NCBI RefSeq assembly: GCF_003584685.1
Contig: NZ_AP018549.1
Location: forward strand, 124,001 to 188,000
DNA length: 64,000 nt
DNA from: Lactobacillus paragasseri
Lineage (GTDB): Bacteria > Bacillota > Bacilli > Lactobacillales > Lactobacillaceae
Direction of reading: 5' to 3'
Each line of letters opens with the position of its first letter. The stretch's first letter is position 1. Both the position numbers and the translations under genes were made by a program. Below, in pieces: positions 35,471 through 55,732 of this stretch. The notes beneath the pieces are model-generated. The model was not told the origin of the DNA. It made no database searches and saw only the letters and a program-made list of their open reading frames with translations.

Positions 35471-38400
35471 ATGTTATTCAATAAAAAAGACTTTGATTCT
35501 AAACAACGTTTTAGTATTAGAAAATTGAGCGTTGGTGTTTGTTCTGTTTTACTTTCAACTTTATTTCTAACTTTTAATGAAGGTCAGACAGTTCACGCAA
35601 GTACGAATGTTAATGCGGCGGACACTACAACGACTAGTGTATCATCTAATACTACTAATAATAGTTCTGATAATAATACTGATAAAAAAGATGACTCCAA
35701 AGTAGAGGCATCTTCTTTGGCAACCGCTGAAAAGCATGCTCCAATTCCAATTGCTGCTGAAATTAAGAGTAACAAGTCAGAAGATCAGACAAATAGTGCA
35801 TCTGCTGAAACTGATACTCAAGTAAGTAAATCTAAGCAAGCGCAAAATCAAACAACTACTAATATTGTTAAAGCTACTGATACTCAAGCGGCAACTTCTT
35901 CAAAAGATAGCTCTGACACAACAAGCTCTAAGGATAATTCTGCCCAAAATACTGTTGAAAAAAATAGATCAACCTCAACTTCAAAATATACACCTGTCTT
36001 AACTAGCGAAACTTCCGTTTCTACTAAAACTAATCAAAGTAATAGTAATTCTGCTACTCAAGAAAAATCGAATATTAAACCTGTAACCCCTCATGCTGAT
36101 TCAACCGAACATATTGCACCAGAGACTTATACTATGGATAGCGACACACCTGCTTATGTGATTGCTGGGAGTGATTTGACAAATTTAGCCTCAAAATTTA
36201 TTTCCAATGCGGCTGCTTTAACTCAAAGCGGGGCTACTTTTTCTTGGGTTGGCAATGCCCCAACTGCAACTCAACAAGATGCCATTGATGGTAATACGAT
36301 ATCTGGGATCATTAAAGTAACGTATAAAGATGGTACAAGTACAACTGCTGATATTGAATCTTACGTTGAAGCACGATCACAGCTTCAACCAGATACTTTC
36401 TACTATGTGAATAGGGTAAACGATACCCCAGACTTTAACACCGCCGATGCTAACGGCAATAACTTTTCTACGATGATTGGCAATCAATATGCATATGATT
36501 CTACTGCCTTTTCTTACAAGATATTAGGGACACTTGATACAAGTAGTTTAGGCATCCACTGGGCCAATGTTCAAGTTACGGATAACAATACTTTTGCTGG
36601 TGATTCCGATGCTCCTAAAGTTATCGGTGATCCTTATGTTGTTAAGGTTCCTTATGTAGTTCAAGGGCTTAAATTGCGGGATGATATTCCAACTGATTCT
36701 AATGGTAATCCTGTAATTAATGCTCAGCTGGCAACAATGCCGAAATCAACATCTGCAACACCGACAACACCAGAACTTGCTTTTGATCCTGTCAAAGGTG
36801 AGCCTTCGACTAATAATGTACCAGCGGGCTTATGGGGACAATATTTCTACCAAGATTATGCTTTGGCTTACGCATTAGGTATCAAAGTGCAAGTAGCTGC
36901 AGATGACCTAGATAATAATAGAAAGTGGAAAAACAAACCAACTGATTTAGTCAATACTAAGACCAACCACTTCGCAATAACTTTTAACAAGTTGTCTAAT
37001 GCTACCCAGCAGAAAGTAGACATAAATTACGTATCTGCTCCACATGCTGAGGATATGTATATCTATAATGCCGCAAACAAAACTTATATGACTGGTCGAC
37101 CAGAAAATGTGCAAGCAATTAAGGATTTGCTTGCTGCCGGCTACATGAATGATAAAGTTTGGGTAACGTTAGCTGATGGCACTAAGGTCTATGCTTCTAA
37201 GCTTGAGTATATTGAAAATCGTAATAACTTTGTTGTTGGTGGTGCAAGAAGCGGCAAATACAACATTAACTTCAATGCTAGTTTTAACCAAACAAATAGC
37301 GCTGGCCAACCGTTGATTTTTTCAAATAACATTTTTAGTACAGCAAGTGCTGACTTTAATGCTGAGCTAAATAAGTGGTATCAGAAGACCAACAATACGA
37401 CGGTTGCTAATTATGCTGCACCTACTGCCGCAACTTGGGATAAGGTTTCAACTAATGGGATTTCCTTAGCACCAACGATCAAAGCCAGTGATGATCCCCA
37501 CGTTCAAACTTTAACCAACGGTCCAGTTACTTTTGATAGTGAGGCACTCGAAAAATTAGTAAAAAACCCAAGTACGGGTGTAGAAGTGCGTAAAGTTCAA
37601 CATACTTGGCTGGCTAATATAGTCCCTAACCCAATTCTGGACAATAACACGAAATGGCCAGAAGGTACTAAACTCACTTGGGCCGGTAATGATGGCAGTA
37701 CCAAATTAACCTTCGATAAAGCCGGTGAAAGCAAGACCGGGAACGTAACAATTACTCTTCCCAGTGGTTCGTCATACACGGTTAAAGACATTACAGTTAT
37801 CTCTAAAGCTAATGTGATCGCAAAGAGTGAAACTGTTGACTATGGGACTACTTTGACAGCAGCTGACTTAGTAACTAATAAGAATGTCTTCCCAGAAGGA
37901 ACTACTTATCAATTCGTTGATAATTCAGAACCAACCTGGGGGACAGCTGGTTCATATAATAATGTTAAAATTACAGCTACTTACAAGGATGCTAGCGGAG
38001 CAAGTGTTACTACACCAGTTGCAAACTGTGCGGTTGCTATTAACGATAGCCGCAGCATCAAGGTATTAGTTGGCAGTGATGTTCCTTCAGTTGATAGTGT
38101 CTTGAACTTGCCAAGCACTTGGGAAGAACATACTGCATCTTGGACTACTTCACCTAACACCAACTCGACTAATGAGGGTGTAATTACGATCCATTATCCA
38201 GCTAGCAATTTGGATCAACAAATTAAGGTTTATGTAACGGTTATTCCGAAGACCACCGCAGTTGATGGACAAAACTTCTTCACCAATGGCGAGAAGTATG
38301 ATGGAACTACTGGTAGTATTGCTAACGGCAATAACCAGGGAGCAATTTTAACCCAAGCTAATGGTCAAGCAATTGACTATACCACTTATAGTGGTCAAAA

Positions 38401-39028
38401 GACGCCGGGTGAACAAACAGTTTATGATACGAAGACGACCAGTTACACACCAACTTACAGTTTGTCTGGTCTTGAAACCAATAGTGATGGTAGTTTAGTT
38501 AGTGGCGTTCAAACCGCAACAGTTCGCGTATCTGTACCTAAAGGCACGATTGGTGCCAAAGTAGACGCTGATGGCACTTACTACTATGAAGTAAATGCGA
38601 AGGTAAATATTGCTCAAAAAGTTAATTTTGAGTTTGTGGATGAATATAATGATAACAATGTTGTTGGTGAAACTTACTCACAAGAATTTGTTCCTGGAGT
38701 TGAAACAAATCTTAAATTCCATATGGCAATGCCAGACGGCTATGAACTAGGAAACGGTGCGTCAATTCCAAGTCAATATACTTTGGCTGCTTTTAGTCAA
38801 ACGACGCCTGTTGTTCAAGTTCCAATTCACCAAAAGATGCACTTCTACATTACTTTCCATGATGAAGATTCAAATACTAATCTTGGGACGGTAGAAGTGT
38901 CAGGCAGTGCTGCAGCAGGAACTGGTGGCTATTATCCAAGCATTAACACGAAATTAACATTTCCAGCAGGTGCTGATGCTGGTGACTATTATTCTGTTTC
39001 AACTTCTGGCGTGCCGGATGGGGTGTAG
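35471..39028 (+). CDS. Adhesin fragment 1: signal peptide and N-terminal domains
   Basis: Encodes 1,185 residues. ATG 35471 is chosen over the TTG at 35453 because the latter precedes the ribosome site. FSIRKLSVGVCSVLLSTLF (about residues 18-36) is a YSIRK-type signal peptide, and HAST marks the likely cleavage. Residues 40-220 are Ser/Thr/Asn-rich and low in complexity. Domains rich in aromatic and Asp residues follow, with Rib-like stretches (VIAGSDLTNLASKFI; SETVDYGTTLTAADLV). MucBP-like sequence (FEFVDEYNDNNVVGETYSQE) comes just before the TAG. Without the rest it would be secreted and not wall-linked. Confidence 0.75.
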   Translation: MLFNKKDFDSKQRFSIRKLSVGVCSVLLSTLFLTFNEGQTVHASTNVNAADTTTTSVSSNTTNNSSDNNTDKKDDSKVEASSLATAEKHAPIPIAAEIKSNKSEDQTNSASAETDTQVSKSKQAQNQTTTNIVKATDTQAATSSKDSSDTTSSKDNSAQNTVEKNRSTSTSKYTPVLTSETSVSTKTNQSNSNSATQEKSNIKPVTPHADSTEHIAPETYTMDSDTPAYVIAGSDLTNLASKFISNAAALTQSGATFSWVGNAPTATQQDAIDGNTISGIIKVTYKDGTSTTADIESYVEARSQLQPDTFYYVNRVNDTPDFNTADANGNNFSTMIGNQYAYDSTAFSYKILGTLDTSSLGIHWANVQVTDNNTFAGDSDAPKVIGDPYVVKVPYVVQGLKLRDDIPTDSNGNPVINAQLATMPKSTSATPTTPELAFDPVKGEPSTNNVPAGLWGQYFYQDYALAYALGIKVQVAADDLDNNRKWKNKPTDLVNTKTNHFAITFNKLSNATQQKVDINYVSAPHAEDMYIYNAANKTYMTGRPENVQAIKDLLAAGYMNDKVWVTLADGTKVYASKLEYIENRNNFVVGGARSGKYNINFNASFNQTNSAGQPLIFSNNIFSTASADFNAELNKWYQKTNNTTVANYAAPTAATWDKVSTNGISLAPTIKASDDPHVQTLTNGPVTFDSEALEKLVKNPSTGVEVRKVQHTWLANIVPNPILDNNTKWPEGTKLTWAGNDGSTKLTFDKAGESKTGNVTITLPSGSSYTVKDITVISKANVIAKSETVDYGTTLTAADLVTNKNVFPEGTTYQFVDNSEPTWGTAGSYNNVKITATYKDASGASVTTPVANCAVAINDSRSIKVLVGSDVPSVDSVLNLPSTWEEHTASWTTSPNTNSTNEGVITIHYPASNLDQQIKVYVTVIPKTTAVDGQNFFTNGEKYDGTTGSIANGNNQGAILTQANGQAIDYTTYSGQKTPGEQTVYDTKTTSYTPTYSLSGLETNSDGSLVSGVQTATVRVSVPKGTIGAKVDADGTYYYEVNAKVNIAQKVNFEFVDEYNDNNVVGETYSQEFVPGVETNLKFHMAMPDGYELGNGASIPSQYTLAAFSQTTPVVQVPIHQKMHFYITFHDEDSNTNLGTVEVSGSAAAGTGGYYPSINTKLTFPAGADAGDYYSVSTSGVPDGV

Positions 39029-42000
39029 TTAGTTGGGAGTTACGGGGTATCGCTTACCAATCCAACCGCCGATTGGACAACTCCAAACTATCAGTGGGAG
39101 AATACTTTCTCCGTTCTTAAGGCTTTAACCGGTGCAACGATGACCATTAATCTTAAGCACAAGATCCAGGAAACACAAGAACAACAAACTCGTAAGCCGA
39201 CTGTGAACTATATTAAGGCTAAAGTTAATGCCGATGGTACTTATACGCCAGACGGGTCTGCATTTACTTCTGCTGTCCTTGATGTGTACTACTCAAGAAC
39301 TAAGTCAAAGGATCTGGTTACTAAGAAAGTTACCTACACTCCATGGCTTTGGGATACCAAGCAAGGGCAGAATGGTTACCATGTTGAATCAGGTACATGG
39401 ACTAGTCTGCCACAGCAGTGGGCAGCTGTTGTTGCAGATGTGCCGACATTAGATGGTTACACTGCCGCTAAAGTTACCGATACATCAGGTAAACTAGCAA
39501 ATCAATTTGTCTTCCCAACTTGGAATAATTCAGATCAAGGGACATCTGATATTAATAAGGAATCTTTAGCATATACTGAGAACGCCCCAATCTATGAAGC
39601 ACGTCCAGTTCATACTGTTTTGTATATTCCTAATGAAACTACTTCAAGTACAGTAACTGCGAAATTTGTAATTGCTGGCGGTGACAAGAATGGTCAACAA
39701 TTTGCGCCTGACTCACAGATACAAGTGTTTTATGACCGAACTGGTAGTTTAAACGTCGCCAATAATAAGATTACTTATGGTAATTGGCAGTTTGATCAAA
39801 ACGCAGGGGATAAAACTACTCCAGGCTTCCATGTGATTTCTGGTAACTGGTCAGATGGAATTAAGACAGGAGCTACGGCTGGCTTTACAGTGATTCCGCC
39901 TGATGGTAATAATGAGTACGTTGCTGTAACAAAATCTATTCACCCTTATGTTGCGGGATTTTATTACTCTACGATTCAGTTTGCTAATCCGACAGGAACC
40001 ACCTTCCCAAATGCTACTGATAACACTTGGTTTAACCGTAATGTACTAACTACTTACTATGTGCCAACTTCAATGGTAAATAAGACCGTAACGCGGACAA
40101 TTACAATTACTGAACCTGGTCAAGATAGTAAGACGATCACGCAAACAGCTAAATTAACTAGACAGGTAAGAGTTAACAATGATGATACCGGTGTTGTTTA
40201 TGATGGCTTTGCAGGTAGCGGCTGGAGTACTGGTAACTGGGCAGCTCAAGATGTACCAACTTATGCTGGTTACACGATGTCTGTAAATCAAACAGTTAAC
40301 GGGATTACTACTCCAATTCAACTTGTTAATGGTCAAATTCCAGCTGAAACGGTTAATGGTACTACCCAAGATACTGCAATCACCATTAGTTGGGGTGCTG
40401 TTACTACAGCTGCATTAACTGGTAATGGCAATAGTACTTACAATGGTCAAGCAATTACTAATGACGAGCTTAACAATGCATTGAAAGTAACTGTTACAGG
40501 ACCTACTGCTAGTGCTGGTGCTTATACTCTTCAAGCGGGGGATGTTGCATTCTCTACTGATGGCACTAATTGGACTACTGCTTTGCCAACTAATGCTGCT
40601 AAGTACCAAGTTCGTTTAACTGAACAAGGCAAAACGAATATTGTTAACAAATATGGCAATAACAGTATTATTTGGACTCAAGATGGTAAGTCAACAATCA
40701 CCAGTGATGCAACTTACACAATTAATAAGCTTGCTAGTGATGCAGTAATGGCTAATGCCCAGACTGGCAATTATGAGATGACCTACAATGGTGCTGCGCC
40801 AAGTTCAATTGATCCAAGCAAATTCGTCTTTACAACGACTGTTAATAGGCAAACTGTTACCCTTGATGCCACTGGCTTAGATAGCGGTGACTTTACTTGG
40901 GCTGATGGCACTGCGCCGGTTAACGTGGGTACTTACAAGGTTGTCTTGACTGCTGCTGGGTTAGCTAAGCTGAATGCTAATAATCCAAACTTTAAGTTAA
41001 CTAATTCTGGCAACGGGACTTTCACGATTAACCAGGCAAATGCTTCAGCTATTCTTTCCGGTAGTGCAAGTCGTGAATACAATGGTCAAGCAGTCAGCGT
41101 TGATGATATCAACTCAACTAGCACTGGCGACAACATTACTTTGACCTTGCACTATCCAAAGGATGGTAATGCTAACTACTCGACGACTGTTAAGTTGAAC
41201 AGTGGTGACTTCACGTGGAATACACCAAATGGTCAGGCACCAGTTAACGCAAGCGATCAGCCTTACACGATTAGTTTGAATAGTGATGCCATTGCAGAGA
41301 TCATCAAGCAAGCTGTTGGTAGCGGTCAAAATGATGTAAGTAACGTTAAGTTTGCTAGTGATGCAATTAGTGGTAGTGCAAATTACACAATCACACCATT
41401 AGAAAGTTTAGCAGAACTTTCTAATATTACTAATGGTAATTACACGAAAGTTTATAACGCTGAAACTACTAACCAGATTGATGCTTCGAAGTTGCACATT
41501 ACTGCAAATCTTGGCGGTCAAAATGTGGACTTAGATACTACAGGAATCACTGGTAGTGACTATCAATGGGTTGATGCAAGTGGTGCAGAATTGACTTCTA
41601 ATCCAAAGAACGTTGGTACTTACTACATCAAGTTAAGCGATACTGCTTTTGCTAGATTGCAAGCACAAAACCCTAACTTCAAATTGACAAGTAACGACGG
41701 ATTAGGTGTTTATACGATTACACCAGCTACTGCTAATATTACTTTTGGCGGTACTAACTCTCGTGTTTATAACGGTCAAGGTACCACTACTACAGAAATT
41801 AACAGTAACGGTCAAATTAAAGTTCACTTTACTTTCCCGGGCTCAGTTTTAGATGCCTCTTATACGCTTAAAGATCGTGATTATTACTTGGTTGATCAGG
41901 ATGGGGCTGGTTATGATGGTGCTCAAATAATTAATGTTGGCACTTATACGATTAAGCTGACCCAACAGGGGATGCAAAATGTCATTGATACGATTCATCA

Positions 42001-45000
42001 ACTATCAGGTAGTGGCGATAGCGGCTATAACATTAATGTTGACCCCGCAACTCAATTGGGTAACTTAACTTCAACATTTAATATTGTTCCTTCGCAAAAT
42101 ACGATTAGCGTTTCTGGTACACAAACTGAAACCTACAATGGTTCACCAATTAATGTTGTCTACAATGCTGATGGCACTAACAGTGTGAAGGTTTCAATCG
42201 CTCAAACTAGTGGTAATACCACTGGCGCTGTCGCAAGTTTAGCCGATGTAGCCCTTGATTCAGGTGACTTTGCAATCGTTAACGATCCAGCCGAAAATGC
42301 AGGTAGCTATCAAGTTAAGTTGACTGATGCTGGCTTAGCTAAGATTCAAAATGTAGTTGGCGATAATTATCATATTAGTATTGATCCAAATGCTTTTGGT
42401 ACTTTAGTAATTAAAAAATACAAGGCTAGTGCAGTCTTCAGTGGTGATCCTTCATACACTTATACCGGAACGCCTGTTAGTGCTGATGATTACTTGGGTA
42501 AATACTCAATTACGTTAAATGAGCCTAACAATCCAACTTATAACTTGGTTGCTGGCGATATTGAATTTAAAGTTGACGGTAATTGGACCCCCCAAGCTCC
42601 TGTTAAAGTTGGTAAGTATGATGTTCGCTTATCACAGTCAGGCTGGAAGCACATTAAGGCAATTAATAGCGATAATGTTGAATGGTCTGCTACTGCCTCT
42701 GCAGGAACCGGCACTTACACTATTAATCAGGCTAAAGTTACCGCTGAGCTTAGTGGTAATAACTCAATGATTTACAATGGCTCACATGTAACTACTGCTG
42801 ACTTGTATACTGAGGGTTCAACAATTAAGGTAGCTATTAACGGTACTGGAATTGCCAACTTGCCAAAGAGCTTCACTTTAGAAGATGGTGACTATACTTG
42901 GTCAACGAGTGATAACCAATCGCCAGTAAACGTTGGTAATTACACGATTAAGTTGACACAGGCTGGTATCAATAAGATCCAAAGTCAGATTGATCAGGTT
43001 GTGGGTGCTGGTAACGTGGGCCTTACGACAACTACTGACGACGGAGGCTCTGCAAGCTTTGAGATTAAGCAGGCAGTTGCTGCTAACGTTCAACTATATG
43101 GTGGAGAAAATACTATCTATAATGGCAATCCAGTCAGCTTTGATCCAACTAAGACTGAAACAGCTAACAACTTTGGCTTCCATAACGTTGAAAACTTAAC
43201 AGTTCCTACTTTCACAGCTAGTGACTTTACTTGGTATGATGGTCAAGGCAATAAACTTTCATCTGCACCAACTAATGCTGGTACTTATTACTTGAAGCTG
43301 AATACTCAAGGTGAAAAGGCCTTTGCGGATGCTAACCCTAATTACACTTTTGAAGAAAATGGTAAGAGCACAATTTCTGGAGAAATCCCATATGTAGTAA
43401 CTCCAGCTGAATTAACAATTGGTGTTTCAGGTAGTGCTTCTAAAGTCTTTAATGACAAGAATGCTGAAATTACGCAAGAGCAAATCAACAATGGCGATAT
43501 TAAATTAGTTTGGGGCAATTCAACTACTGAGCCAACTGATTTAGGTAAATTTACTTTAACTCCATCTGATCTTGAAGTAGTTGATGCCAACGGCAAACAT
43601 GCTATCCATGCTAATGCCGGGATTGGTGCCGATGGTCAACCTGTAAAAGGTAATCCTTACAAGGTTCAATTGACTGCTGACGCTATTAAAAGAATTAAGC
43701 AATTATCAGGTGCTGCTAATTATAAGATTAGTCAGTCAGCTAAGAGCGGTGAGTACTTCATTTATGAACATAAAGCTGAATTAACCTTAACTGGTAATCA
43801 AACGACTGTTTATGGAACAGCAATGCCATTTAGTCCAAGTAAGTATCAATTAGCCTTTACTAATTGGCTTTCTACTGATTTACCAGTTCCAAACTTAACT
43901 TGGAAAGACAACAAGCTTTTAAATAATGATAATGATACTGGACTTACCTGGACAGTTGGTGACTTATATGTTGAAGGCTATCCGGATGGTGGTGTTCCAA
44001 CTAATGTCGGCACTTACCGCGTAAAAATTTCTAAGCAGCTAACTGATAAGTTACGCCAATTATTCCCAGACTATGACTTCTCGGGTAACATTGGGGAAAA
44101 CGGTGTTGATGAACAGGATAATGAAGAGATTGTTGAACCAAGTCATACACCAGCTTCATATGTTATTACGCCAGCTAATACAACGGTAAAAATTACTGGG
44201 GCTCAACATGTGAAATATGGTGAATCGACTAACATTAATGTTGGTGATTACAGTATTTCTATCACCGCACCTGTTCACAATGAAACTGTTGATAATAATG
44301 CAGAACGAATTTATACAAACGTAACTTTAGCTGCTGGTGATCTTGAGTTTGTTACTGTACCTACTAATGTGGGTACTTATCAAGTTAAGTTATCAGCACA
44401 AGGTTTGCAAAAGCTTAAAGATTTAACGGGTTCAAGCAACTATGATTGGACGCAAGCTGCGGATGCTAAGGCTAACTTCTTTGTTGAACAAATGCCAGTA
44501 ACTATTGCTGTTTCAGGTCAATCAAGTGTAACTTATGGTACGCAAGATTGGCTCAATGCAATTAAAGTAAACCCATCTGGCTATGTATTAACAATTACCA
44601 CTGAAAATGGGGCTGCTCTAAGTTATCACACAGTTGATGGTGATCTAGTATTTAACCAAACCCCAGGTAATGTTGGTGAATACCAAGTAGAATTGTCTGC
44701 ACAAGGTTTGGCTAACATTGAAGAAAAGCTCGGCACTAATTACTCATACCCACAAACCGCTGCTGATGTAACTGCGAAGGGAACATTCACGGTTAAACAA
44801 GGTGAAGTTACTGTTACTCTTAATGGTAGTGACGGCAAAACTTATAATGCCGTACCAACCTTATCAAGTGGTCTTAACTTAGATAAGTACAACGTAACTT
44901 ACTCTGCTACGGTTTACTCCGCTGATGGTAAAGCACAGACTCTAACTTTGACAGCTAATGATTTACAAATTATTGGTGATGCAACTAATGTCGGTACTTA

Positions 45001-45349
45001 TCAAGTAAAACTATCAGAAATTGGCCAAGAAAAGCTAAAAGCATTAACTGGTAATCAGGGTGCTAACTACAAGTGGGCATTTAATACTAATGCTGATTAT
45101 GTAGTAAAAGCAGCCACAGCTAGTGCAGAACTTAGTGGCTCTAACCAAAAGACTTTTGATGGAACTGCTGTAACAACTGCTGAAGTTAATAGCAATGGGC
45201 AGATTTTAGTTCACCTTACTTACCCAGGCTCTAATGTTCAAAGTACTTACACTTTGCAAGACGGTGACTACATTTGGGAGACTGAGGATGGTCAAATAAT
45301 TTCTGCACCGACAAATACTGGTACTTACACTATTAAGTTGAACAAGTAG
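39029..45349 (+). CDS. Adhesin fragment 2: MBG repeat array, no start of its own
   Basis: This in-frame middle part (about 2,106 residues) begins right after the first TAG. The first ATG (39140) has no ribosome site, so independent translation is unlikely. It opens with two adhesin modules containing long beta stretches (YYSRTKSKDL...GTWTSLPQQW; FYDRTGSLNV...GNWSDG). From about 40,400 it continues as tandem MBG-type domains of about 90-110 residues, each ending in a NVGTYxVKLTxxG-like signature. Related copies differ in sequence and so are not recent duplicates. It ends at TAG 45347 in the middle of one such repeat (GTYTIKLNK-stop-AILVHLQAAL). Confidence 0.65.
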   Translation, partial: LVGSYGVSLTNPTADWTTPNYQWENTFSVLKALTGATMTINLKHKIQETQEQQTRKPTVNYIKAKVNADGTYTPDGSAFTSAVLDVYYSRTKSKDLVTKKVTYTPWLWDTKQGQNGYHVESGTWTSLPQQWAAVVADVPTLDGYTAAKVTDTSGKLANQFVFPTWNNSDQGTSDINKESLAYTENAPIYEARPVHTVLYIPNETTSSTVTAKFVIAGGDKNGQQFAPDSQIQVFYDRTGSLNVANNKITYGNWQFDQNAGDKTTPGFHVISGNWSDGIKTGATAGFTVIPPDGNNEYVAVTKSIHPYVAGFYYSTIQFANPTGTTFPNATDNTWFNRNVLTTYYVPTSMVNKTVTRTITITEPGQDSKTITQTAKLTRQVRVNNDDTGVVYDGFAGSGWSTGNWAAQDVPTYAGYTMSVNQTVNGITTPIQLVNGQIPAETVNGTTQDTAITISWGAVTTAALTGNGNSTYNGQAITNDELNNALKVTVTGPTASAGAYTLQAGDVAFSTDGTNWTTALPTNAAKYQVRLTEQGKTNIVNKYGNNSIIWTQDGKSTITSDATYTINKLASDAVMANAQTGNYEMTYNGAAPSSIDPSKFVFTTTVNRQTVTLDATGLDSGDFTWADGTAPVNVGTYKVVLTAAGLAKLNANNPNFKLTNSGNGTFTINQANASAILSGSASREYNGQAVSVDDINSTSTGDNITLTLHYPKDGNANYSTTVKLNSGDFTWNTPNGQAPVNASDQPYTISLNSDAIAEIIKQAVGSGQNDVSNVKFASDAISGSANYTITPLESLAELSNITNGNYTKVYNAETTNQIDASKLHITANLGGQNVDLDTTGITGSDYQWVDASGAELTSNPKNVGTYYIKLSDTAFARLQAQNPNFKLTSNDGLGVYTITPATANITFGGTNSRVYNGQGTTTTEINSNGQIKVHFTFPGSVLDASYTLKDRDYYLVDQDGAGYDGAQIINVGTYTIKLTQQGMQNVIDTIHQLSGSGDSGYNINVDPATQLGNLTSTFNIVPSQNTISVSGTQTETYNGSPINVVYNADGTNSVKVSIAQTSGNTTGAVASLADVALDSGDFAIVNDPAENAGSYQVKLTDAGLAKIQNVVGDNYHISIDPNAFGTLVIKKYKASAVFSGDPSYTYTGTPVSADDYLGKYSITLNEPNNPTYNLVAGDIEFKVDGNWTPQAPVKVGKYDVRLSQSGWKHIKAINSDNVEWSATASAGTGTYTINQAKVTAELSGNNSMIYNGSHVTTADLYTEGSTIKVAINGTGIANLPKSFTLEDGDYTWSTSDNQSPVNVGNYTIKLTQAGINKIQSQIDQVVGAGNVGLTTTTDDGGSASFEIKQAVAANVQLYGGENTIYNGNPVSFDPTKTETANNFGFHNVENLTVPTFTASDFTWYDGQGNKLSSAPTNAGTYYLKLNTQGEKAFADANPNYTFEENGKSTISGEIPYVVTPAELTIGVSGSASKVFNDKNAEITQEQINNGDIKLVWGNSTTEPTDLGKFTLTPSDLEVVDANGKHAIHANAGIGADGQPVKGNPYKVQLTADAIKRIKQLSGAANYKISQSAKSGEYFIYEHKAELTLTGNQTTVYGTAMPFSPSKYQLAFTNWLSTDLPVPNLTWKDNKLLNNDNDTGLTWTVGDLYVEGYPDGGVPTNVGTYRVKISKQLTDKLRQLFPDYDFSGNIGENGVDEQDNEEIVEPSHTPASYVITPANTTVKITGAQHVKYGESTNINVGDYSISITAPVHNETVDNNAERIYTNVTLAAGDLEFVTVPTNVGTYQVKLSAQGLQKLKDLTGSSNYDWTQAADAKANFFVEQMPVTIAVSGQSSVTYGTQDWLNAIKVNPSGYVLTITTENGAALSYHTVDGDLVFNQTPGNVGEYQVELSAQGLANIEEKLGTNYSYPQTAADVTAKGTFTVKQGEVTVTLNGSDGKTYNAVPTLSSGLNLDKYNVTYSATVYSADGKAQTLTLTANDLQIIGDATNVGTYQVKLSEIGQEKLKALTGNQGANYKWAFNTNADYVVKAATASAELSGSNQKTFDGTAVTTAEVNSNGQILVHLTYPGSNVQSTYTLQDGDYIWETEDGQIISAPTNTGTYTIKLNK

Positions 45350-47050
45350 GCTATCTTAGTTCACTTACAAGCTGCTCTGAACCAGCAAGCTGGTTTAGGT
45401 GACAATGATCAGTCTAATGTGACTGTTTCAGCAGATAAACTAAGTGGTCAAGCAAGCTTTAAAATTAATCCACAAACACTCACTGACGTAACAATTTCTG
45501 CACCTGATCAAAGTAAGACTTATGATGCTCAAGCAGCGGATCTTGATGTTAATGGAATAACTATTACTGCAAATGGAATCGTTGCTAATAATCCATTAGT
45601 AAATCCGGGTATTAGCGCTAGCGACTTCACTTGGTATGATGAAACTGGTAATAAGCTTGAAAGTGCACCGGTTGATGTTGGAACTTACCAGGCACGCTTA
45701 AATGCAAGTACGCTTGCTGAATTGCAAAATACAAATCCAAACTATCAATTTAGCTCTGTAGCTGGTTTGATTAACTACACAATTAATCCAGCTCCTGCCA
45801 CTGCAAAAATTAGTGGTTCAGCTGATCGTGACTACAATGCTCAAACTACTTCTGTTTCGGATGTAATGAACAATATCAAGTGGAAGGCAACAGGTTTAGT
45901 TACTGACCAAGAGCTTAATCTTAATGGTTTAACTGCTAATAGTTATGCTTGGTACAGTAAAGATGCTGACGGTAACTACGTTGCAATGACTGGTAATCCA
46001 GTAAACGCTGGCACTTACTACTTACGCTTGACTAAGGATGCAATTGCACAAGTAAAAGCTGATAATTCAAATTACAACTTTACTTCAGTTGATGGCGAAT
46101 TTACTTACACGATCAACGTTGTAAACGGTACTGCAACTCTTAGGGGCTCATCTTCTAAGACTTATGATGGTCAAGCTGCAACTACTGCTGAAGTGAATAG
46201 TACAAACGGTGATATTATTGTTAACTTTGCTTTCCCAGGATCAAGTGCTCAAAGTACTTATGCTTTGCAAGCTGGAGATTACATTTGGGAGAACAAGGAT
46301 GGTCAAGAAATATCAGCACCAACTAATGCTGGTACTTACACTATTAAGTTAAGTGCAGATGGTATTACAAACTTGCAAAACGCAATCAACCAATATGCTG
46401 GCCAAGGAAATGTAACTTTAGACACACAAGATCTTTTAGGTGCTGCTGTTTACACAATTAAGCAAAAAGCTCTTAATGTAATCCTTGGTAATAATAGTAC
46501 TGGTACAGATGGCAAGACTTACGATGGTCAGCCAGCAGTAATCAATACTCAAGCTGAAAACTTTGGCGTGTTCACCACTAGTGGCCTAGTAAATGGCGAA
46601 GACTTGAATGCCGCTAACTTAACTAATGACGACTACGAATGGGTAGACGCAAATGGTAAGGCAATATCAGCACCAACTAATGCTGGTACTTACTACATTT
46701 CTTTGACCGCAAATGGATTGAAGAAATTACAAGCTGACAATCCTAACTACGCAATTTCTGAAAGTGGACAATTTACTTACGTAATTAGTCCAGCTGAAGA
46801 AAATGTAACAATTTCTGGTAGTCAGGAAAGCACATCAACCTCAATTGATAATGCAAACTTCACGGTTCACGCTCCAGCAGGTATTACAGTTCCAACAGGG
46901 ATGACTTATGAGTTTGCAACTGGAGTTCCATCTGAATCTGGCGTTTATGTAATTAAATTAACTCCAGAAAGTATCGCTGCTCTTGAAAAAACAAATCCAA
47001 ACTACAAGCTGAATATTTCTTCAGACGCTAGATTTACCTTGGATGCAACT
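40430..47050 (+). repeat. Array of about 20 MBG-type protein repeats
   Basis: Repeated at protein level: a strand pattern beginning SG-x-YNG-x and closing with variants of P-x-N-V/A-G-T-Y-x-x-K/R-L-T-x-x-G, roughly every 270-330 bp. Examples: APVNVGTYKVVLTAAGL, PTNAGTYYLKLNTQGE, ATNVGTYQVKLSEIGQ. The DNA is only moderately similar between copies, indicating an old expansion. Confidence 0.75.
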
Positions 47051-50000
47051 TTAAGTATTGAGTTTGAAGATACACAAGATGGTAATAAGCAAGTCGGTAA
47101 GACAATTACTAAGACAGGTGTTGCTAATTCAACTATCAATGATCTTAAATTAGTTGTTCCTGACAATTACGAATTAGCTCCAGATCAAGAATTACCAACT
47201 AGTTATACTTTTGGTAAGACATTGAATCAAAACTTGTATATCAAGTTAGTTCATAAGTTGAATGAGCTTAATCCAACTGATCCAAGTACTAATCCACATC
47301 CAACTAATAAGAATTGGTTCAGAGAAAATGGCTTAGTTAAGGACGTTACTCGGACAATCAACTACGAAGGATTAAGTACAGCCCAATTAGCTCAAATTCC
47401 AGAAACTCAAAAAGCTCAAACTGTTGAGTTTACTAGAACTGCTAAGTATGACTTAGTTACTGGTAAGATTGTTGTAAATAGTGAAGGTTCATGGACTGCA
47501 GTAGATGGTAAAGATATCTTCGCTGGCTTTACTCCATTTGCCTTTGCTGGATACACAGCAGCTCCTGCTAAGGTTGAGCAAGTGAAAGTAACTGGTAATG
47601 ATAAGAATAGTCAAATTACTGTTACTTACACTGCAAACAATCAAACAGGTAAGATATCTTACGTTGATAGTGATGGTAAAGAAGTTGGCCAAACCACAAT
47701 CAGTGGTAAGACTGGTGAAACTGTCAAGGTAACGCCAGAAGCACCAACAGGCTGGCAAATTGTTTCAGGCCAAGATATTCCTAAGAGTGTTACAGCAACA
47801 GCTACTGGTATTCCAACAGTAACTGTGAAAGTAGAGCACAGTACAATAATCGTTACTCCGGAAACCCCTGAAAAGGATATTCCAACAGGTCCAGTACCTG
47901 GTGATCCAAGCAAGAATTACGAGAAGATGGAAAGTTTAACAGCTTCACCAACTCGAACAATTGTTGTAACTGACCCAAGCGGTAAGACTACTAAGGTCAC
48001 TCAAACTGTAAACTTCACTAGAACAGCAACGTTTGATGAAGTAACAGGCGAGATAACTTACAGTAACTGGGCAAGTTCTGAACCAACAGAATGGTCAGAA
48101 TACACAGCACCGGAAGTGGCAGGCTACACCGCAACTTCAAGTGTCAGTGCAAAAACGGTGACTGCTGAAACTGCAGATGAAACGGTAAACATTTCTTACA
48201 CTGCAAACAATCAAACAGGTAAGATTTCTTACGTTGATAGTCAAGGCAATGAAGTTGGTCAAACTGCATTAACAGGCGAGACCGATCAAAGCGTTGCAGT
48301 AACTCCAGAAGCACCATCAGGCTGGAGAATAGTTTCAGGCCAAGATATTCCTAAGAGTGTTACAGCAACAGCTACTGGCATTCCAACAGTAACTGTAAAA
48401 GTAGAGCATGGAACAGTTATCGTAACTCCAGACACACCAGAAAAGGATATCCCAACAGGCCCAGTACCTGGTGATCCAAGCAAGAATTACGAGAAGATGG
48501 AAAGTTTAACAGCTTCACCAACTCGTACGATTGTGGTAACTGATCCAAGTGGTAAGACTACTGAGGTAACTCAAACTGTAAACTTCACTAGAATGGCAAC
48601 ATTCGATGAAGTAACAGGCGAGATAACTTACAGTAACTGGGCAAGTTCTGAACCAGCAGAATGGTCAGAATACACGGCACCAGAAGTAGCAGGTTACACT
48701 GCAACTTCAAGTGTTAGTGCAAAACCAGTGACTGCCAAAACTGCAGATGAAACAGTAAGCATTTCTTACACTGCAAACAACCAAACAGGTAAGATCTCTT
48801 ATGTTGATGGCGATGGTAAGGAAGTCGGTCAAACCACAATATCTGGCAAGACTGGCGAAACAGTCAACGTAACTCCACAAGTTCCATCGGGTTGGAAGAT
48901 TGTACCAGGTCAAGATATTCCTAAGACAATAACAATTAGCGAAAATGGTATTCCAACAGTAACTGTGAAAGTAGAGCGCAGTACAATAATCGTTACTCCG
49001 GAAACCCCTGAAAAGGATATCCCAACAGGCCCAGTTCCAGGAGATCCAAGCAAGAACTACGAGAAGATGGAAAGTTTAACAGCTACACCAACTCGTACGA
49101 TTGTGGTAACTGATCCAAGCGGTAAGACTGCTAAGGCAACTCAAACTGTAAACTTCACTAGAACAGCAACGTTCGATGAAGTAACAGGTGAAGTTACTTA
49201 CAGTGACTGGCAACTTGAAAAATCAACGTCTGCTAACCATACAGCTCAATGGGATAGCTACACTCCTCAGTTCATTACACACTATGTTCCAAGCATAGCT
49301 GAAGTACCTGCTGAAGAAGTGAACGCTAATACTGCTGACCGCCAAGTAACAATTACTTACACTCCTGCTTCAGAAAGCCAAGTAATTCGCTATGTTGATC
49401 AGAATGGTAAAGAAATTAGTACCCAAATTGTTTCAGGTAAGTACGGCTTAGATACAACATTTACACCAAAATTACCTAACAACTGGCAAGCTGCTAATAC
49501 TATTCCAACTTCAATCAAGATTGGTGAAAATGGTGGTTTGACTACAATTGTCGTTGAAGCTAAGACTGAAAAAGTACAACAAGCTAAGACTGTTACTGAA
49601 ACTATCCATTATCACACTGCTAATGGCAAACAATTATTTGCTGATAAAGAAATGGAAGTTAACTTCTTTAGAACTGGTGTAAAGAATCTTGTAACTGGTG
49701 AGATTACTTGGAATAACTGGAATAAAGATAAAGAAAGCTTTAATGAAGTTCTTTCTCCAAAAGTTTCTGGATACACGGCTTCTCCAGCTAAAGTTGCAGC
49801 TCAAACTGTAACTCCTAACTCAGAAGACCTAGTATTCAACGTAATTTACACTAAGAATTCACAAACTTATCCAACAATTCCAGAAAATAAACCAAATAAG
49901 CCACAAGAAGAAAATGTTTCTAAGCAAGAAACTAAGACTCAAGATAAACTCATTCACGAATATGGATATAAGAAACGTGCAGATGGTCGTTTAGTAGACC

Positions 50001-50221
50001 ATACTGGTCATGTATATCCAGCAAGTAGCAAAGTTAAAGAAAATGGAGCTATCTACAGTGAAAATGGTGAACTATTATCAGTTGGTTCAAGAAGAAAACA
50101 TGAATTGCCGCAAACTGGTCTTCATGACAATAGTTTAATTGCTGCAATTGGATCACTTCTTGCTGGTATTAGTATCTTTGGTTTACTTGGTGGACGGAAG
50201 AAAAAGGATGATGATAAATAA
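45350..50221 (+). CDS. Adhesin fragment 3: last MBG repeats, MucBP/Mub repeats and LPQTG anchor
   Basis: This in-frame C-terminal part (about 1,623 residues) carries the last MBG repeats to about 47,040 and a MucBP-like domain. Near-identical units follow, pairing a MucBP module (TGKISYVDSDGKEVGQT) with a Mub-type module (TRTIVVTDPSGKTTKVTQTV). A lysine/proline segment and the sortase signal LPQTG (50105-50119), hydrophobic tail and GGRKKKDDDK complete it. The first ATG after the stop (45419) has no convincing ribosome site. MucBP and Mub domains bind mucin glycoproteins in other lactobacilli, which is the basis for the adhesin call. Confidence 0.72.
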   Translation, partial: AILVHLQAALNQQAGLGDNDQSNVTVSADKLSGQASFKINPQTLTDVTISAPDQSKTYDAQAADLDVNGITITANGIVANNPLVNPGISASDFTWYDETGNKLESAPVDVGTYQARLNASTLAELQNTNPNYQFSSVAGLINYTINPAPATAKISGSADRDYNAQTTSVSDVMNNIKWKATGLVTDQELNLNGLTANSYAWYSKDADGNYVAMTGNPVNAGTYYLRLTKDAIAQVKADNSNYNFTSVDGEFTYTINVVNGTATLRGSSSKTYDGQAATTAEVNSTNGDIIVNFAFPGSSAQSTYALQAGDYIWENKDGQEISAPTNAGTYTIKLSADGITNLQNAINQYAGQGNVTLDTQDLLGAAVYTIKQKALNVILGNNSTGTDGKTYDGQPAVINTQAENFGVFTTSGLVNGEDLNAANLTNDDYEWVDANGKAISAPTNAGTYYISLTANGLKKLQADNPNYAISESGQFTYVISPAEENVTISGSQESTSTSIDNANFTVHAPAGITVPTGMTYEFATGVPSESGVYVIKLTPESIAALEKTNPNYKLNISSDARFTLDATLSIEFEDTQDGNKQVGKTITKTGVANSTINDLKLVVPDNYELAPDQELPTSYTFGKTLNQNLYIKLVHKLNELNPTDPSTNPHPTNKNWFRENGLVKDVTRTINYEGLSTAQLAQIPETQKAQTVEFTRTAKYDLVTGKIVVNSEGSWTAVDGKDIFAGFTPFAFAGYTAAPAKVEQVKVTGNDKNSQITVTYTANNQTGKISYVDSDGKEVGQTTISGKTGETVKVTPEAPTGWQIVSGQDIPKSVTATATGIPTVTVKVEHSTIIVTPETPEKDIPTGPVPGDPSKNYEKMESLTASPTRTIVVTDPSGKTTKVTQTVNFTRTATFDEVTGEITYSNWASSEPTEWSEYTAPEVAGYTATSSVSAKTVTAETADETVNISYTANNQTGKISYVDSQGNEVGQTALTGETDQSVAVTPEAPSGWRIVSGQDIPKSVTATATGIPTVTVKVEHGTVIVTPDTPEKDIPTGPVPGDPSKNYEKMESLTASPTRTIVVTDPSGKTTEVTQTVNFTRMATFDEVTGEITYSNWASSEPAEWSEYTAPEVAGYTATSSVSAKPVTAKTADETVSISYTANNQTGKISYVDGDGKEVGQTTISGKTGETVNVTPQVPSGWKIVPGQDIPKTITISENGIPTVTVKVERSTIIVTPETPEKDIPTGPVPGDPSKNYEKMESLTATPTRTIVVTDPSGKTAKATQTVNFTRTATFDEVTGEVTYSDWQLEKSTSANHTAQWDSYTPQFITHYVPSIAEVPAEEVNANTADRQVTITYTPASESQVIRYVDQNGKEISTQIVSGKYGLDTTFTPKLPNNWQAANTIPTSIKIGENGGLTTIVVEAKTEKVQQAKTVTETIHYHTANGKQLFADKEMEVNFFRTGVKNLVTGEITWNNWNKDKESFNEVLSPKVSGYTASPAKVAAQTVTPNSEDLVFNVIYTKNSQTYPTIPENKPNKPQEENVSKQETKTQDKLIHEYGYKKRADGRLVDHTGHVYPASSKVKENGAIYSENGELLSVGSRRKHELPQTGLHDNSLIAAIGSLLAGISIFGLLGGRKKKDDDK
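47641..49350 (+). repeat. Three tandem 570-bp MucBP-Mub repeat units
   Basis: Landmarks recur at exact 570-bp steps: AAACAGGTAAGAT at 47643, 48213 and 48783; GGTGATCCAAG or GGAGATCCAAG ending at 47910, 48480 and 49050. Units are about 47641-48210, 48211-48780 and 48781-49350, each 190 codons, highly similar in DNA. The third diverges after about 49,200. Such repeats are prone to recombination and copy-number change. Confidence 0.85.
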
Positions 50222-52721: not shown

Positions 52722-52828
52722 TGGAAAATTTAGCTTGATTTTATATGTAAAATGCCAATGTTTATGCACTTGAAAAGCCATTTATAAGTTATTAGAATAA
52801 AAGAGTAATGTTAATTGGAGGAGAAAAA

Positions 52829-55732
52829 ATGAAAGGATTAAAATACACAAGTTTAGCTGTGGCAGCATTAACTGCTACTATTTTGGCAAGCACCAATAAT
52901 GGTAAAGTTCAAGCTGCATCAACTAATGAAAACGATACTGTTACTGTAGCAAAATCAGATCAAGAAAATGCTCAAGCAGCTGTTAATGAAGCACAGAATT
53001 CAGTTAATAATGCTCAAGCAGCTGTTGATAGCAAGAAGAGTGCATTAACTGATGCTCAAGCAAAAGCTAAAGCACCGGATAATGCTTACTCTGCTCAACA
53101 AGCTAAAGTAAATGACAGTCAAAAGAATCTTTCTGCTAAGCAAGCTATCGCAAAACAAGCACAAGATAAATTAAATAGTGTCACTGAAATTTCAAAGAAA
53201 GCTACTCCAGAAAATATTCAAAAAGCACAAAAGAGTATTGCCGCTCAACAAGATGCAATTAAAAATGCTAAGCAAAATGTTAGTGATGCAAATGTAGATT
53301 TGAATAAAGCACAAGCTCAATTAGCAACTGCTAAGCAAAAACAAGCTGATGCTCAAAATGTAGTTAATGCTAAAGAATCTGCTAAACAAACAGCCGATAA
53401 GAATGTTGCTAAGGCAGAAGCTGATGTTAAGAACAGCGGTTTAGATGAAGCAAAGCAAGACGTTGAAAAGGTTCAAACGACATTAAACGACATTAAAAAG
53501 ACCAATGCTAACAATGAATCTATTTTAACTACAAATAAGTCTGCTTTAACTGAAAACAATCAAAAGATTGCAACTGTTAATAATAAGATTGCAACTGCAA
53601 ATCAAGCTGTAGTAGATGCCCAAAACAATGTTAATACTAAACAACAAGCATTGGCTGATGCTAAAAAGGCTTTAAAAGATTTACAAGATCAAGTTGCTAA
53701 AGATCAAGCAAGTGGTGCGGCTGGTTTCTTTAAGTCAATTGCCGATAATAAAGATAATTCTGAAAGTTTAAGAGAAGATGCACGTACTGCATATGATATT
53801 GTTACTGGTAAGCCAAATGCTTACCAAGATATTACTGTAAGATGGGTTAAACAAGCTGTTGAGTTGGGTCAAGAAAAAGACTCTACTTCATTCAGTAATA
53901 TGGAAAAAGCTCTAGGATATTATGAACATTGGATGACATACCGTGATAAGTATGGCTTGAGTCATCCATCAATTTCTTTAACTGCTGTTGCCATTGCAAT
54001 GCTTAGTTCTGATTTTCAACATTATTCTGATGAATTTAATCACCCTATTTTATTAACTGCTAAATATGGTCCATTTTATGAAGATGAAGAAGATATTTCA
54101 GCTGGAGACGTTAATCCAATTGATAACTGGATGAGTGAAAAAGAAGATATCGATAACTATATTAAGGATCATCCAGATGCAGCTGCTTATAGTTTTGAAA
54201 GTAGTCATCCATTAACTGAAGATGATTGGGCAAGAGATGTTGATTTCTGGAGTAATAAACCAGTAGATATTGGTCACTATACTTCTATGATAAAACCAGA
54301 TGCCAACTATGTTGGATTAGCTGGAAATGAATATGAGATTGAACCATTCATGGATAATGCAGATAGCATGGATGAAATTGAATTTGATCCAATTAACGGT
54401 ATGGACTTCAATAGTTACCAAAATCTAGTTCACTCATATTTGCAAAACATTAAACAAGAAGATCAAATTAACACTCTTAAAGCTAACGTAGAAACCGCAA
54501 GCCAAAACTTAACTGCTGCACAAAATGCCGTTCAAGCAGCCCAAAACAATGTTAAGAGTTTACAAGCTAACTTAGCAGAATTAAACAATGGTTCTACTAA
54601 GATTAACAAGGCAATTGCTGATACTCAAGATGCTCTTGCAAAGGGCAGAGAAAATCTCGAATTTGAACAAAAGCAACTAGATCAAGCAAACAAGAATTTA
54701 GCAGCTGTACAAGCTAAAGTTGGTGCAAAGGCAAAAGCATTAGATGACGCAAAAGCTGCTCAAGCTAAGGCTGCCGATGCTTTAGCTCAAGCTCAAAATG
54801 TTTTAGCTGGAGCTACTGCTGCAGTGAAGTCAGCTCAAACAACTGTTGATAATGCACAAGGTAATGTTAATGCCAAGAACAAGGATCTTAAGGCTGCACA
54901 AGCAAGTCTAGAATCATTGAAGCAAACATTAAGTAGCTTAGAAAATGCTAAGGCTAACTTAGCAGCAGCTCAAGCAGCTTTAACTACCGCAAACAATGAT
55001 GTATTAACAGCTGATAAAGATGTAAAAGCACAAGAATTAATTTTATCTTCTTTAGGAGAAGCCAAGGGTAAGTCAGATGCTCAAGTTGCAAGTGCAGAAA
55101 AAGATTTGGAGAAGGCTGAGTCAGATTTAGCTAATGAACAAAGTAAATTGGCTGCCGCAAAAGCTAAATTAGCTGAATTGAATAAAAAAGCCAACAACAA
55201 TACTGGTAAGTCAGATTCTAAACCTGAAATTAATAATCAAAAACCTGCTAAACCAGCAACTAAGCCAGGTTCAGAAAGTGTAAATACTGAAAAGCCAGAA
55301 CCTGATTTTTCAGGTAATAACAAATCAGATTCAAAGAAAGAACAAAATTCTACAGATAATGTAAAATCAGATGTTAAATCTGAAAACAAGTCAAATAAGA
55401 CTAAGGAAGAATCAAAATCATCATCTTCTGTAAAGATTGTTGATAATGGTGACGACTCAGCTGCATCTGTTGTTTTAACTGGCTCTGATACCGCAGTTAA
55501 AGTTTTTGGTGAAAAGACTGTAAACGGCACGACTTACTACAAGATCGGAGCAAATCACTGGGTAAAAGCTGATAAAGCACATGTTGTTTCTATTGGTGGT
55601 CAAGCAACTACTAAACACTTGCCACAAACTGGTGCTAAGAATGAAATTATTGCAGCAATCTCAGGCTTAACAGTTGCTTCAGTTGGTATTGCTAGTGCAA
55701 TGGGCATGAGCCGTAAGAAAAAGAATAACTAA
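52829..55732 (+). CDS. LPXTG-anchored SEC10/PgrA-like coiled-coil surface protein with SLAP domain
   Basis: ATG 52829 follows GGAGGAG and gives 967 residues; the in-frame ATG at 52808 is before that site. Order: signal peptide (1-29, ending VQAAS), coiled coil rich in Ala/Gln/Lys (about 45-300), a globular region (about 305-545, with KALGYYEHWMTYRDKYG and NKPVDIGHYTSMI) resembling SEC10/PgrA surface-exclusion proteins, a second long coiled coil (about 550-790), a Pro/Lys/Ser wall region, one SLAP-like domain (about 875-925, VNGTTYYKIGANHWVKA) and the sortase signal LPQTG near 930. It is a wall-linked rod that may promote aggregation or contact between cells. Role inferred. Confidence 0.8.
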   Translation: MKGLKYTSLAVAALTATILASTNNGKVQAASTNENDTVTVAKSDQENAQAAVNEAQNSVNNAQAAVDSKKSALTDAQAKAKAPDNAYSAQQAKVNDSQKNLSAKQAIAKQAQDKLNSVTEISKKATPENIQKAQKSIAAQQDAIKNAKQNVSDANVDLNKAQAQLATAKQKQADAQNVVNAKESAKQTADKNVAKAEADVKNSGLDEAKQDVEKVQTTLNDIKKTNANNESILTTNKSALTENNQKIATVNNKIATANQAVVDAQNNVNTKQQALADAKKALKDLQDQVAKDQASGAAGFFKSIADNKDNSESLREDARTAYDIVTGKPNAYQDITVRWVKQAVELGQEKDSTSFSNMEKALGYYEHWMTYRDKYGLSHPSISLTAVAIAMLSSDFQHYSDEFNHPILLTAKYGPFYEDEEDISAGDVNPIDNWMSEKEDIDNYIKDHPDAAAYSFESSHPLTEDDWARDVDFWSNKPVDIGHYTSMIKPDANYVGLAGNEYEIEPFMDNADSMDEIEFDPINGMDFNSYQNLVHSYLQNIKQEDQINTLKANVETASQNLTAAQNAVQAAQNNVKSLQANLAELNNGSTKINKAIADTQDALAKGRENLEFEQKQLDQANKNLAAVQAKVGAKAKALDDAKAAQAKAADALAQAQNVLAGATAAVKSAQTTVDNAQGNVNAKNKDLKAAQASLESLKQTLSSLENAKANLAAAQAALTTANNDVLTADKDVKAQELILSSLGEAKGKSDAQVASAEKDLEKAESDLANEQSKLAAAKAKLAELNKKANNNTGKSDSKPEINNQKPAKPATKPGSESVNTEKPEPDFSGNNKSDSKKEQNSTDNVKSDVKSENKSNKTKEESKSSSSVKIVDNGDDSAASVVLTGSDTAVKVFGEKTVNGTTYYKIGANHWVKADKAHVVSIGGQATTKHLPQTGAKNEIIAAISGLTVASVGIASAMGMSRKKKNN

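What the first reader, a model, noticed from the sequence alone, without database searches (positions are those of the whole stretch)
35471..50221. A 4,916-codon mucus-adhesin frame broken only by two TAG codons
Both interruptions are TAG, in the same frame, with no frameshift, and the sequence after each stop is intact domain sequence lacking any ribosome site. The second stop lies inside an MBG repeat where Gln (CAG) would fit. As drawn, anchor and mucin-binding parts would not be made. Recent phase loss, strain-specific silencing, sequencing error or amber readthrough are all possible. Readthrough of two stops in one gene would be an unusual way to make rare full-length adhesin.
Basis: partly seen in the sequence, partly recalled or inferred. 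Interest (0 to 1): 0.75.

Follow-up and report, generated by a model that had tools for sequence, protein, structure and literature searches.

The report
Giant gut-bacterium adhesin gene, twice interrupted
A very long mucus-adhesin gene in a gut Lactobacillus is cut into three pieces by two recent stop mutations that its close relatives lack, an ordinary strain-specific loss in a gene family that is often broken.

Summary
In detail: window 35471-50221 is one frame of 4,916 codons before a final TAA, broken only by TAG at 39026-39028 (codon 1186) and 45347-45349 (codon 3293). It is a YSIRK/Rib/MBG/Muc_B2/LPXTG adhesin. The nearest relative held, G011 (frame sizes match L. gasseri ATCC 33323), has a glutamine codon at both places. 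Its own copy is broken elsewhere, by a TAG at a 54-base in-frame deletion. Many anchored, uninterrupted alleles occur in L. gasseri/paragasseri records. Two alleles almost identical to the window's keep Gln at one or other site. No CUA anticodon was found among 74 tRNA genes, and prfA is open. Three of nine YSIRK genes are broken in the window's genome, the other two by frameshifts. So this is most likely a recent strain-specific nonsense loss in a family already noted for many pseudogenes (PMC3017865), not amber readthrough. The rest of the frame is intact, which fits young mutations: dN/dS is 0.24-0.32 before and after the stops.

The parts
35471..39028 (+). Piece 1: YSIRK signal peptide, Rib domain, non-repeat N-terminal region; ends at the first TAG; 1,185 aa, no anchor
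39026..39028 (+). First in-frame TAG (codon 1186); glutamine codon in the sister species
39029..45349 (+). Piece 2: rest of the N-terminal region and MBG repeats (15 stretches), up to the second TAG; no signal-peptide family match, first ATG at 39140
45347..45349 (+). Second in-frame TAG (codon 3293), inside an MBG repeat; glutamine codon in the sister species
45350..50221 (+). Piece 3: last MBG repeats, MucBP_2/MucBP, Muc_B2 repeats and LPXTG anchor, final TAA; no signal-peptide family match, first listed start GTG at 45419

Best explanation
This is a giant mucus-adhesin gene of the L. gasseri/paragasseri group that two recent, independent single-base nonsense mutations have silenced in this strain. 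Translation stops at codon 1186, so at most a secreted, unanchored 1,185-aa N-terminal piece is made. The later pieces have no signal peptide and no evident ribosome site, so they are probably not made or exported. Once one stop was in place the other cost little. The rest of the frame is clean because the event is young. Shown: the stops, the sense codons in relatives, the independent break in the sister species, the other broken adhesins in the genome. Inferred: independence and order of the two mutations, absence of downstream protein, and the reason for the loss (drift, or selection against a costly or immune-exposed surface protein).
For: Sister species G011 has a glutamine codon at both positions and its own TAG at a 54-base in-frame deletion. 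Among protein-cluster representatives at least 80% identical and over 150 bits around the site, Gln stands at site 1 in 119 of 122 (Lys in 3) and at site 2 in 108 of 108. P0121 matches the window at 99-100% up to residue 1642 with Gln at codon 1186, then goes out of frame; P0232 matches at 98-100% (MAFFT) from residue 3008 to the end, apart from a gap, with Gln at codon 3293. Of 265 representatives, 85 carry both signal and anchor motifs, 38 the signal only. 3 of 9 YSIRK genes are broken in the window's genome, two by frameshift. dN/dS against the sister is 0.24, 0.24, 0.25 and 0.32 in the aligned pieces. A 2010 survey calls it striking that many large mucus-binding genes are pseudogenes (PMC3017865, section 19).
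Against: Both stops are TAG and the sister's is too. TAG takes 594 of 1,806 single-base routes to a stop in this gene and 106 of 353 transition routes, so two TAGs have a chance of about 0.1. Both hit the rarer glutamine codon (43 of 222 glutamine codons), about 0.04 for two given glutamine. No frameshift occurs in 14.7 kb. Protein databases show sense alleles by nature and hide stops, so the frequency of these two stops in the population is unknown. At site 1 the wider family also has Thr (54 of 182). No reads were available to exclude sequencing error.
Confidence: 0.87

Rival explanations
1. Sequencing or assembly error: one or both TAGs are not in the living strain.
For: Near-identical alleles have Gln at one or other site, and no reads could be examined.
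Against: The genome is a single contig, 99.96% complete. Two substitution errors, both making a stop in one gene, are unlikely (inference). Other adhesins in the same genome and in the sister genome are broken too.
Confidence: 0.06
2. Amber readthrough: a fraction of ribosomes decode UAG, probably as Gln, and rare full-length anchored adhesin is made.
For: All three in-frame stops seen at this locus in two species are TAG; indels between the two species keep the frame, one nearby 19/1 pair counted as net 18; downstream sequence is constrained. RNA folding after the second stop gives z = -2.06, 2 of 200 shuffles at least as stable.
Against: No CUA anticodon among 74 tRNAs; prfA over its cut-off and open; stop positions not shared with the sister; the first stop gives only z = -1.16, 25 of 200 shuffles; TAG ends 11 of 40 other ORFs counted in the window; the stretch with tRNA-Gln(CTG) is identical in the sister (the other Gln tRNAs were not compared). 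Two other adhesins of the genome are broken by frameshifts, which readthrough would not rescue, and a relative, G027, has a TGA inside its match.
Confidence: 0.03
3. Reversible phase variation or allele switching: broken and intact alleles interchange by recombination between strains or among MBG repeats.
For: The locus is mosaic: identity to the sister runs from 65.5% to 99.6% in 500-base steps; allele lengths vary widely.
Against: The genome has no second copy of the region around the first site: the only other match to residues 1187-1609 is a partial 36% one. Single-base changes at unrelated sites are not a switch. No repeat tract at either stop was noticed by eye; no dedicated repeat search was run.
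Confidence: 0.04

Closest known systems
LGAS_0143 of L. gasseri ATCC 33323 (listed as a mucus-binding protein, 2,823 aa; PMC3257693, one passage seen)
   Same: Same locus in the sister genome: the C-terminal part of the broken orthologue is a 2,866-codon frame. G011 is taken as ATCC 33323 because five more frames (2457, 2833, 2450, 2553, 3695 codons) agree with listed proteins of 2457, 2833, 2449, 2552 and 3692 aa; its genome length also agrees from recall.
   Different: Broken at another place, by a TAG at a 54-base in-frame deletion.
YSIRK/MBG-domain proteins of L. gasseri and L. paragasseri, e.g. P0003-P0023 (4,448-4,460 aa), P0051 (4,411 aa), P0082 and P0083 (4,215 aa)
   Same: Matching signal peptide, MBG repeats and anchor; Gln at the aligned positions.
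   Different: Uninterrupted from signal peptide to anchor; about 76-82% identical over residues 1000-1600.
Lar_0958-family LPXTG mucus adhesin (NF040719)
   Same: Shares the MBG-containing region (227.7 and 174.6 bits).
   Different: Far below the family cut-off of 1,200 bits; not a member by that test.

Membership tests
YSIRK/LPXTG giant MBG mucus adhesins | YSIRK signal peptide | tested here: met
   PF04650, E 6.8e-11, 42.2 bits
YSIRK/LPXTG giant MBG mucus adhesins | MBG repeats plus Muc_B2/MucBP domains | tested here: met
   PF17883 15 and 5 stretches; PF17966 5 stretches; PF17965 and PF06458 just over cut-off
YSIRK/LPXTG giant MBG mucus adhesins | LPXTG anchor in the same uninterrupted frame | tested here: not met
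   Anchor present, but separated from the signal peptide by two TAGs
Lar_0958 family (NF040719) | Score over the curated cut-off | tested here: not met
   227.7 and 174.6 bits against 1,200; pieces scored apart
Programmed stop-codon readthrough | Stop at a conserved position in relatives | tested here: not met
   Sense codon at both sites in the sister; other relatives judged from proteins only
Programmed stop-codon readthrough | Suppressor tRNA or altered RF1 | tested here: not met
   No CUA anticodon in 74 tRNAs (150 of 201 first-look candidates were scored); prfA 531 bits, open
Programmed stop-codon readthrough | Stimulating structure downstream | tested here: inconclusive
   z -1.16 and -2.06
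Nonsense pseudogene / strain-specific null allele | Uninterrupted orthologues with sense codons at the stop positions | tested here: met
Nonsense pseudogene / strain-specific null allele | No full-length product | not testable with these tools
   needs proteomics

The most novel reading that the evidence does not exclude
The L. gasseri group tolerates TAG, but not TAA or TGA, inside giant adhesin genes because near-cognate Gln-tRNA decodes UAG at a low rate, giving rare anchored adhesin as a bet-hedging dose. This would explain three TAGs out of three in-frame stops at this locus in two species and the kept frame.
Probability: 0.03. Interest if true: 0.7.

Novelty: new member of a known kind. 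Interest (0 to 1): 0.18.

Why it matters
It is a clear example of how gut lactobacilli lose giant adhesins strain by strain: intact alleles persist in the group while individual strains carry breaks of their own. It warns that adhesion repertoires should be read from single strains, and that annotations such as LGAS_0143 can be parts of broken genes. It does not show a new decoding mechanism.

Tried and rejected
Amber suppression: looked for a CUA tRNA, a lost RF1, a shared stop and a downstream structure; none supports it beyond a weak fold score. Reinitiation at the second and third pieces: no ribosome site seen by eye and no signal-peptide family match, so a three-protein arrangement was set aside. 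Plasmid carriage of a similar gene: no match in the plasmid collection by megablast. Relaxed constraint after the stops: not seen, which fits recent mutation but cannot tell it from low-level use. Papers: five searches. Of their listings I saw passages and section 19 of PMC3017865 and one passage of PMC3257693; the rest as listings with abstract openings only. No listed title or abstract opening described readthrough in Lactobacillus adhesins; the search for 'stop codon readthrough' + Lactobacillus + UAG found 3 papers, 2 listed, neither read.

An earlier count gave the sister's deletion as 57 bases; one search shows 54 bases at the TAG plus a separate 3-base gap. One search was a script that found no files; one search repeated it correctly. 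The stop-usage count used 43 of the 49 ORFs, chosen by hand (six short or overlapping ones dropped).

Limits: the tRNA search scored 150 of 201 first-look candidates. Searches listed the best 120 of 245 and of 160 hits, and all 54; 265 distinct cluster representatives were examined. Clusters are at 90% identity, so the window's own fragments may lie inside clusters and the spread of the two stops among strains is unknown. Signal-only proteins can also come from contig ends or assembly errors. The BLAST table gives 77% for P0232, which is shorter than the window's stretch; the MAFFT alignment gives 98-100% outside the gap. Of nine loci fetched only L087 was analysed.

Full report
Observation. 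The frame at 35471-50221 holds 4,916 codons before the final TAA and exactly two internal stops, both TAG, at codons 1186 and 3293. The three pieces together make one giant adhesin: YSIRK signal and Rib domain; 15 then 5 MBG stretches; MucBP_2, MucBP and five Muc_B2 stretches; LPXTG anchor. The NCBIfam model for the Lar_0958 mucus adhesin matches two pieces well below its cut-off.

Genome. The window is 124001-188000 of a single 1,937,632-base contig, 99.96% complete. Hits at 76-82% identity that bear names are mostly L. gasseri and L. paragasseri. The nearest relative by this gene, G011, is 1,894,360 bases. Its orthologue ends in a 2,866-codon frame, in line with the 2,823-aa LGAS_0143 listed for L. 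gasseri ATCC 33323. Five more of its adhesin frames (2457, 2833, 2450, 2553, 3695 codons) agree with listed proteins of 2457, 2833, 2449, 2552 and 3692 aa. That the genome length is also that of ATCC 33323 is recalled. The window's strain is therefore probably L. paragasseri or another near relative; this was not tested directly.

The two stops. In G011 both positions carry a glutamine codon one base away from TAG. G011 has its own in-frame TAG at the junction of a 54-base deletion. The indels between the two orthologues keep the frame, counting one nearby 19/1 pair as net 18. Over protein-cluster representatives, site 1 aligned in 182: Gln 121, Thr 54, Lys 3, Ile 2, Val 1, Tyr 1. Site 2 aligned in 224: Gln 139, Asp 41, gap 23, Ala 6, Thr 6, and 9 others. 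Among those at least 80% identical and over 150 bits around the site, Gln is 119 of 122 (Lys 3) and 108 of 108. So neither site is invariant across the wider family. Proteins cannot show stops, so these counts describe sense alleles only.

Recency. P0121 matches the window at 99-100% up to residue 1642 with Gln at codon 1186, and then goes out of frame. P0232 matches at 98-100% (MAFFT, outside a gap) from residue 3008 to the end with Gln at codon 3293; the BLAST table gives it 77%. P0001, 99-100% identical from residue 1651 to its end, stops at its residue 2988. Near-identical alleles thus end or shift at different places, though contig ends and assembly errors are not excluded for database proteins. 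Substitution patterns against G011 show constraint in every piece: dN/dS 0.24 (piece 1), 0.24 and 0.25 (two parts of piece 2), 0.32 (piece 3). This fits mutations too young to leave a trace.

Recurrent loss. Of 265 representatives from three searches, 85 have both the signal and anchor motifs, 38 the signal only, 95 the anchor only, 47 neither. In the window's genome 9 YSIRK genes were found. Three are broken: this one; one at 426.5 kb, where a 978-codon frame passes into a 1,299-codon frame in another register; and one at 1,677 kb in three registers. G011 also has 9, with three seen to be broken: this one, one at 427 kb and one at 1,654 kb; one of its others, at 1,616 kb, was not examined. 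The G011 gene that begins like the window genome's 1,677-kb gene is open over 2,450 codons. Of the 59 relatives searched with residues 1187-1609, 14 had a match (its tally of 15 of 60 includes the window's own genome). The four best after G011 (G007, G013, G008, G016) lie in frames of 3,588-4,331 codons without stops, and G027 has one TGA inside its match.

Readthrough. ARAGORN on the stretches covering the 73 Rfam matches gives 74 tRNAs and no CUA anticodon. prfA scores 531 bits in an open frame. The stretch with tRNA-Gln(CTG) and tRNA-Glu(CTC) is identical in G011; the other Gln tRNAs were not compared. TAG ends 11 of the 40 other ORFs counted in the window, and the frame closes again within 36 codons in all 11. 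Downstream folding is unremarkable at the first stop and slightly stable at the second. The chance of two TAGs among stops is about 0.1, and both hit the rarer glutamine codon, 43 of 222; this is mildly unusual and carries little weight alone.

Literature. [quoted passage not shown] The finding is one more case of that kind.

Verdict. A real, correctly described, ordinary strain-specific loss: two young nonsense mutations in a giant adhesin of which many uninterrupted alleles exist in the group.

Noticed in passing
L087:9098-9100 (G011): The sister species' orthologue is itself split, by a TAG at a 54-base in-frame deletion; the annotated LGAS_0143 is probably only its C-terminal part.
   Followed up: yes
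L116 (G000:C1:425500-435000): A second YSIRK/MBG adhesin of the window's genome is broken by a frameshift; the counterpart in G011 (L117) is also broken, near its start.
   Followed up: partly
L118 (G000:C1:1666000-1678500): A third YSIRK adhesin runs through three registers (221, 811, 2,012 codons), while a gene with the same start in G011 (L122) is open over 2,450 codons.
   Followed up: partly
window 35471-50221 against L087: Identity to the sister changes abruptly along the gene (65.5% to 99.6% in 500-base steps), a sign of recombination between alleles.
   Followed up: partly
window 52808-55732: A further LPXTG-anchored protein (974 aa, with a SlpA match just under the cut-off) lies a little downstream.
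   Followed up: no
   Followed up: no
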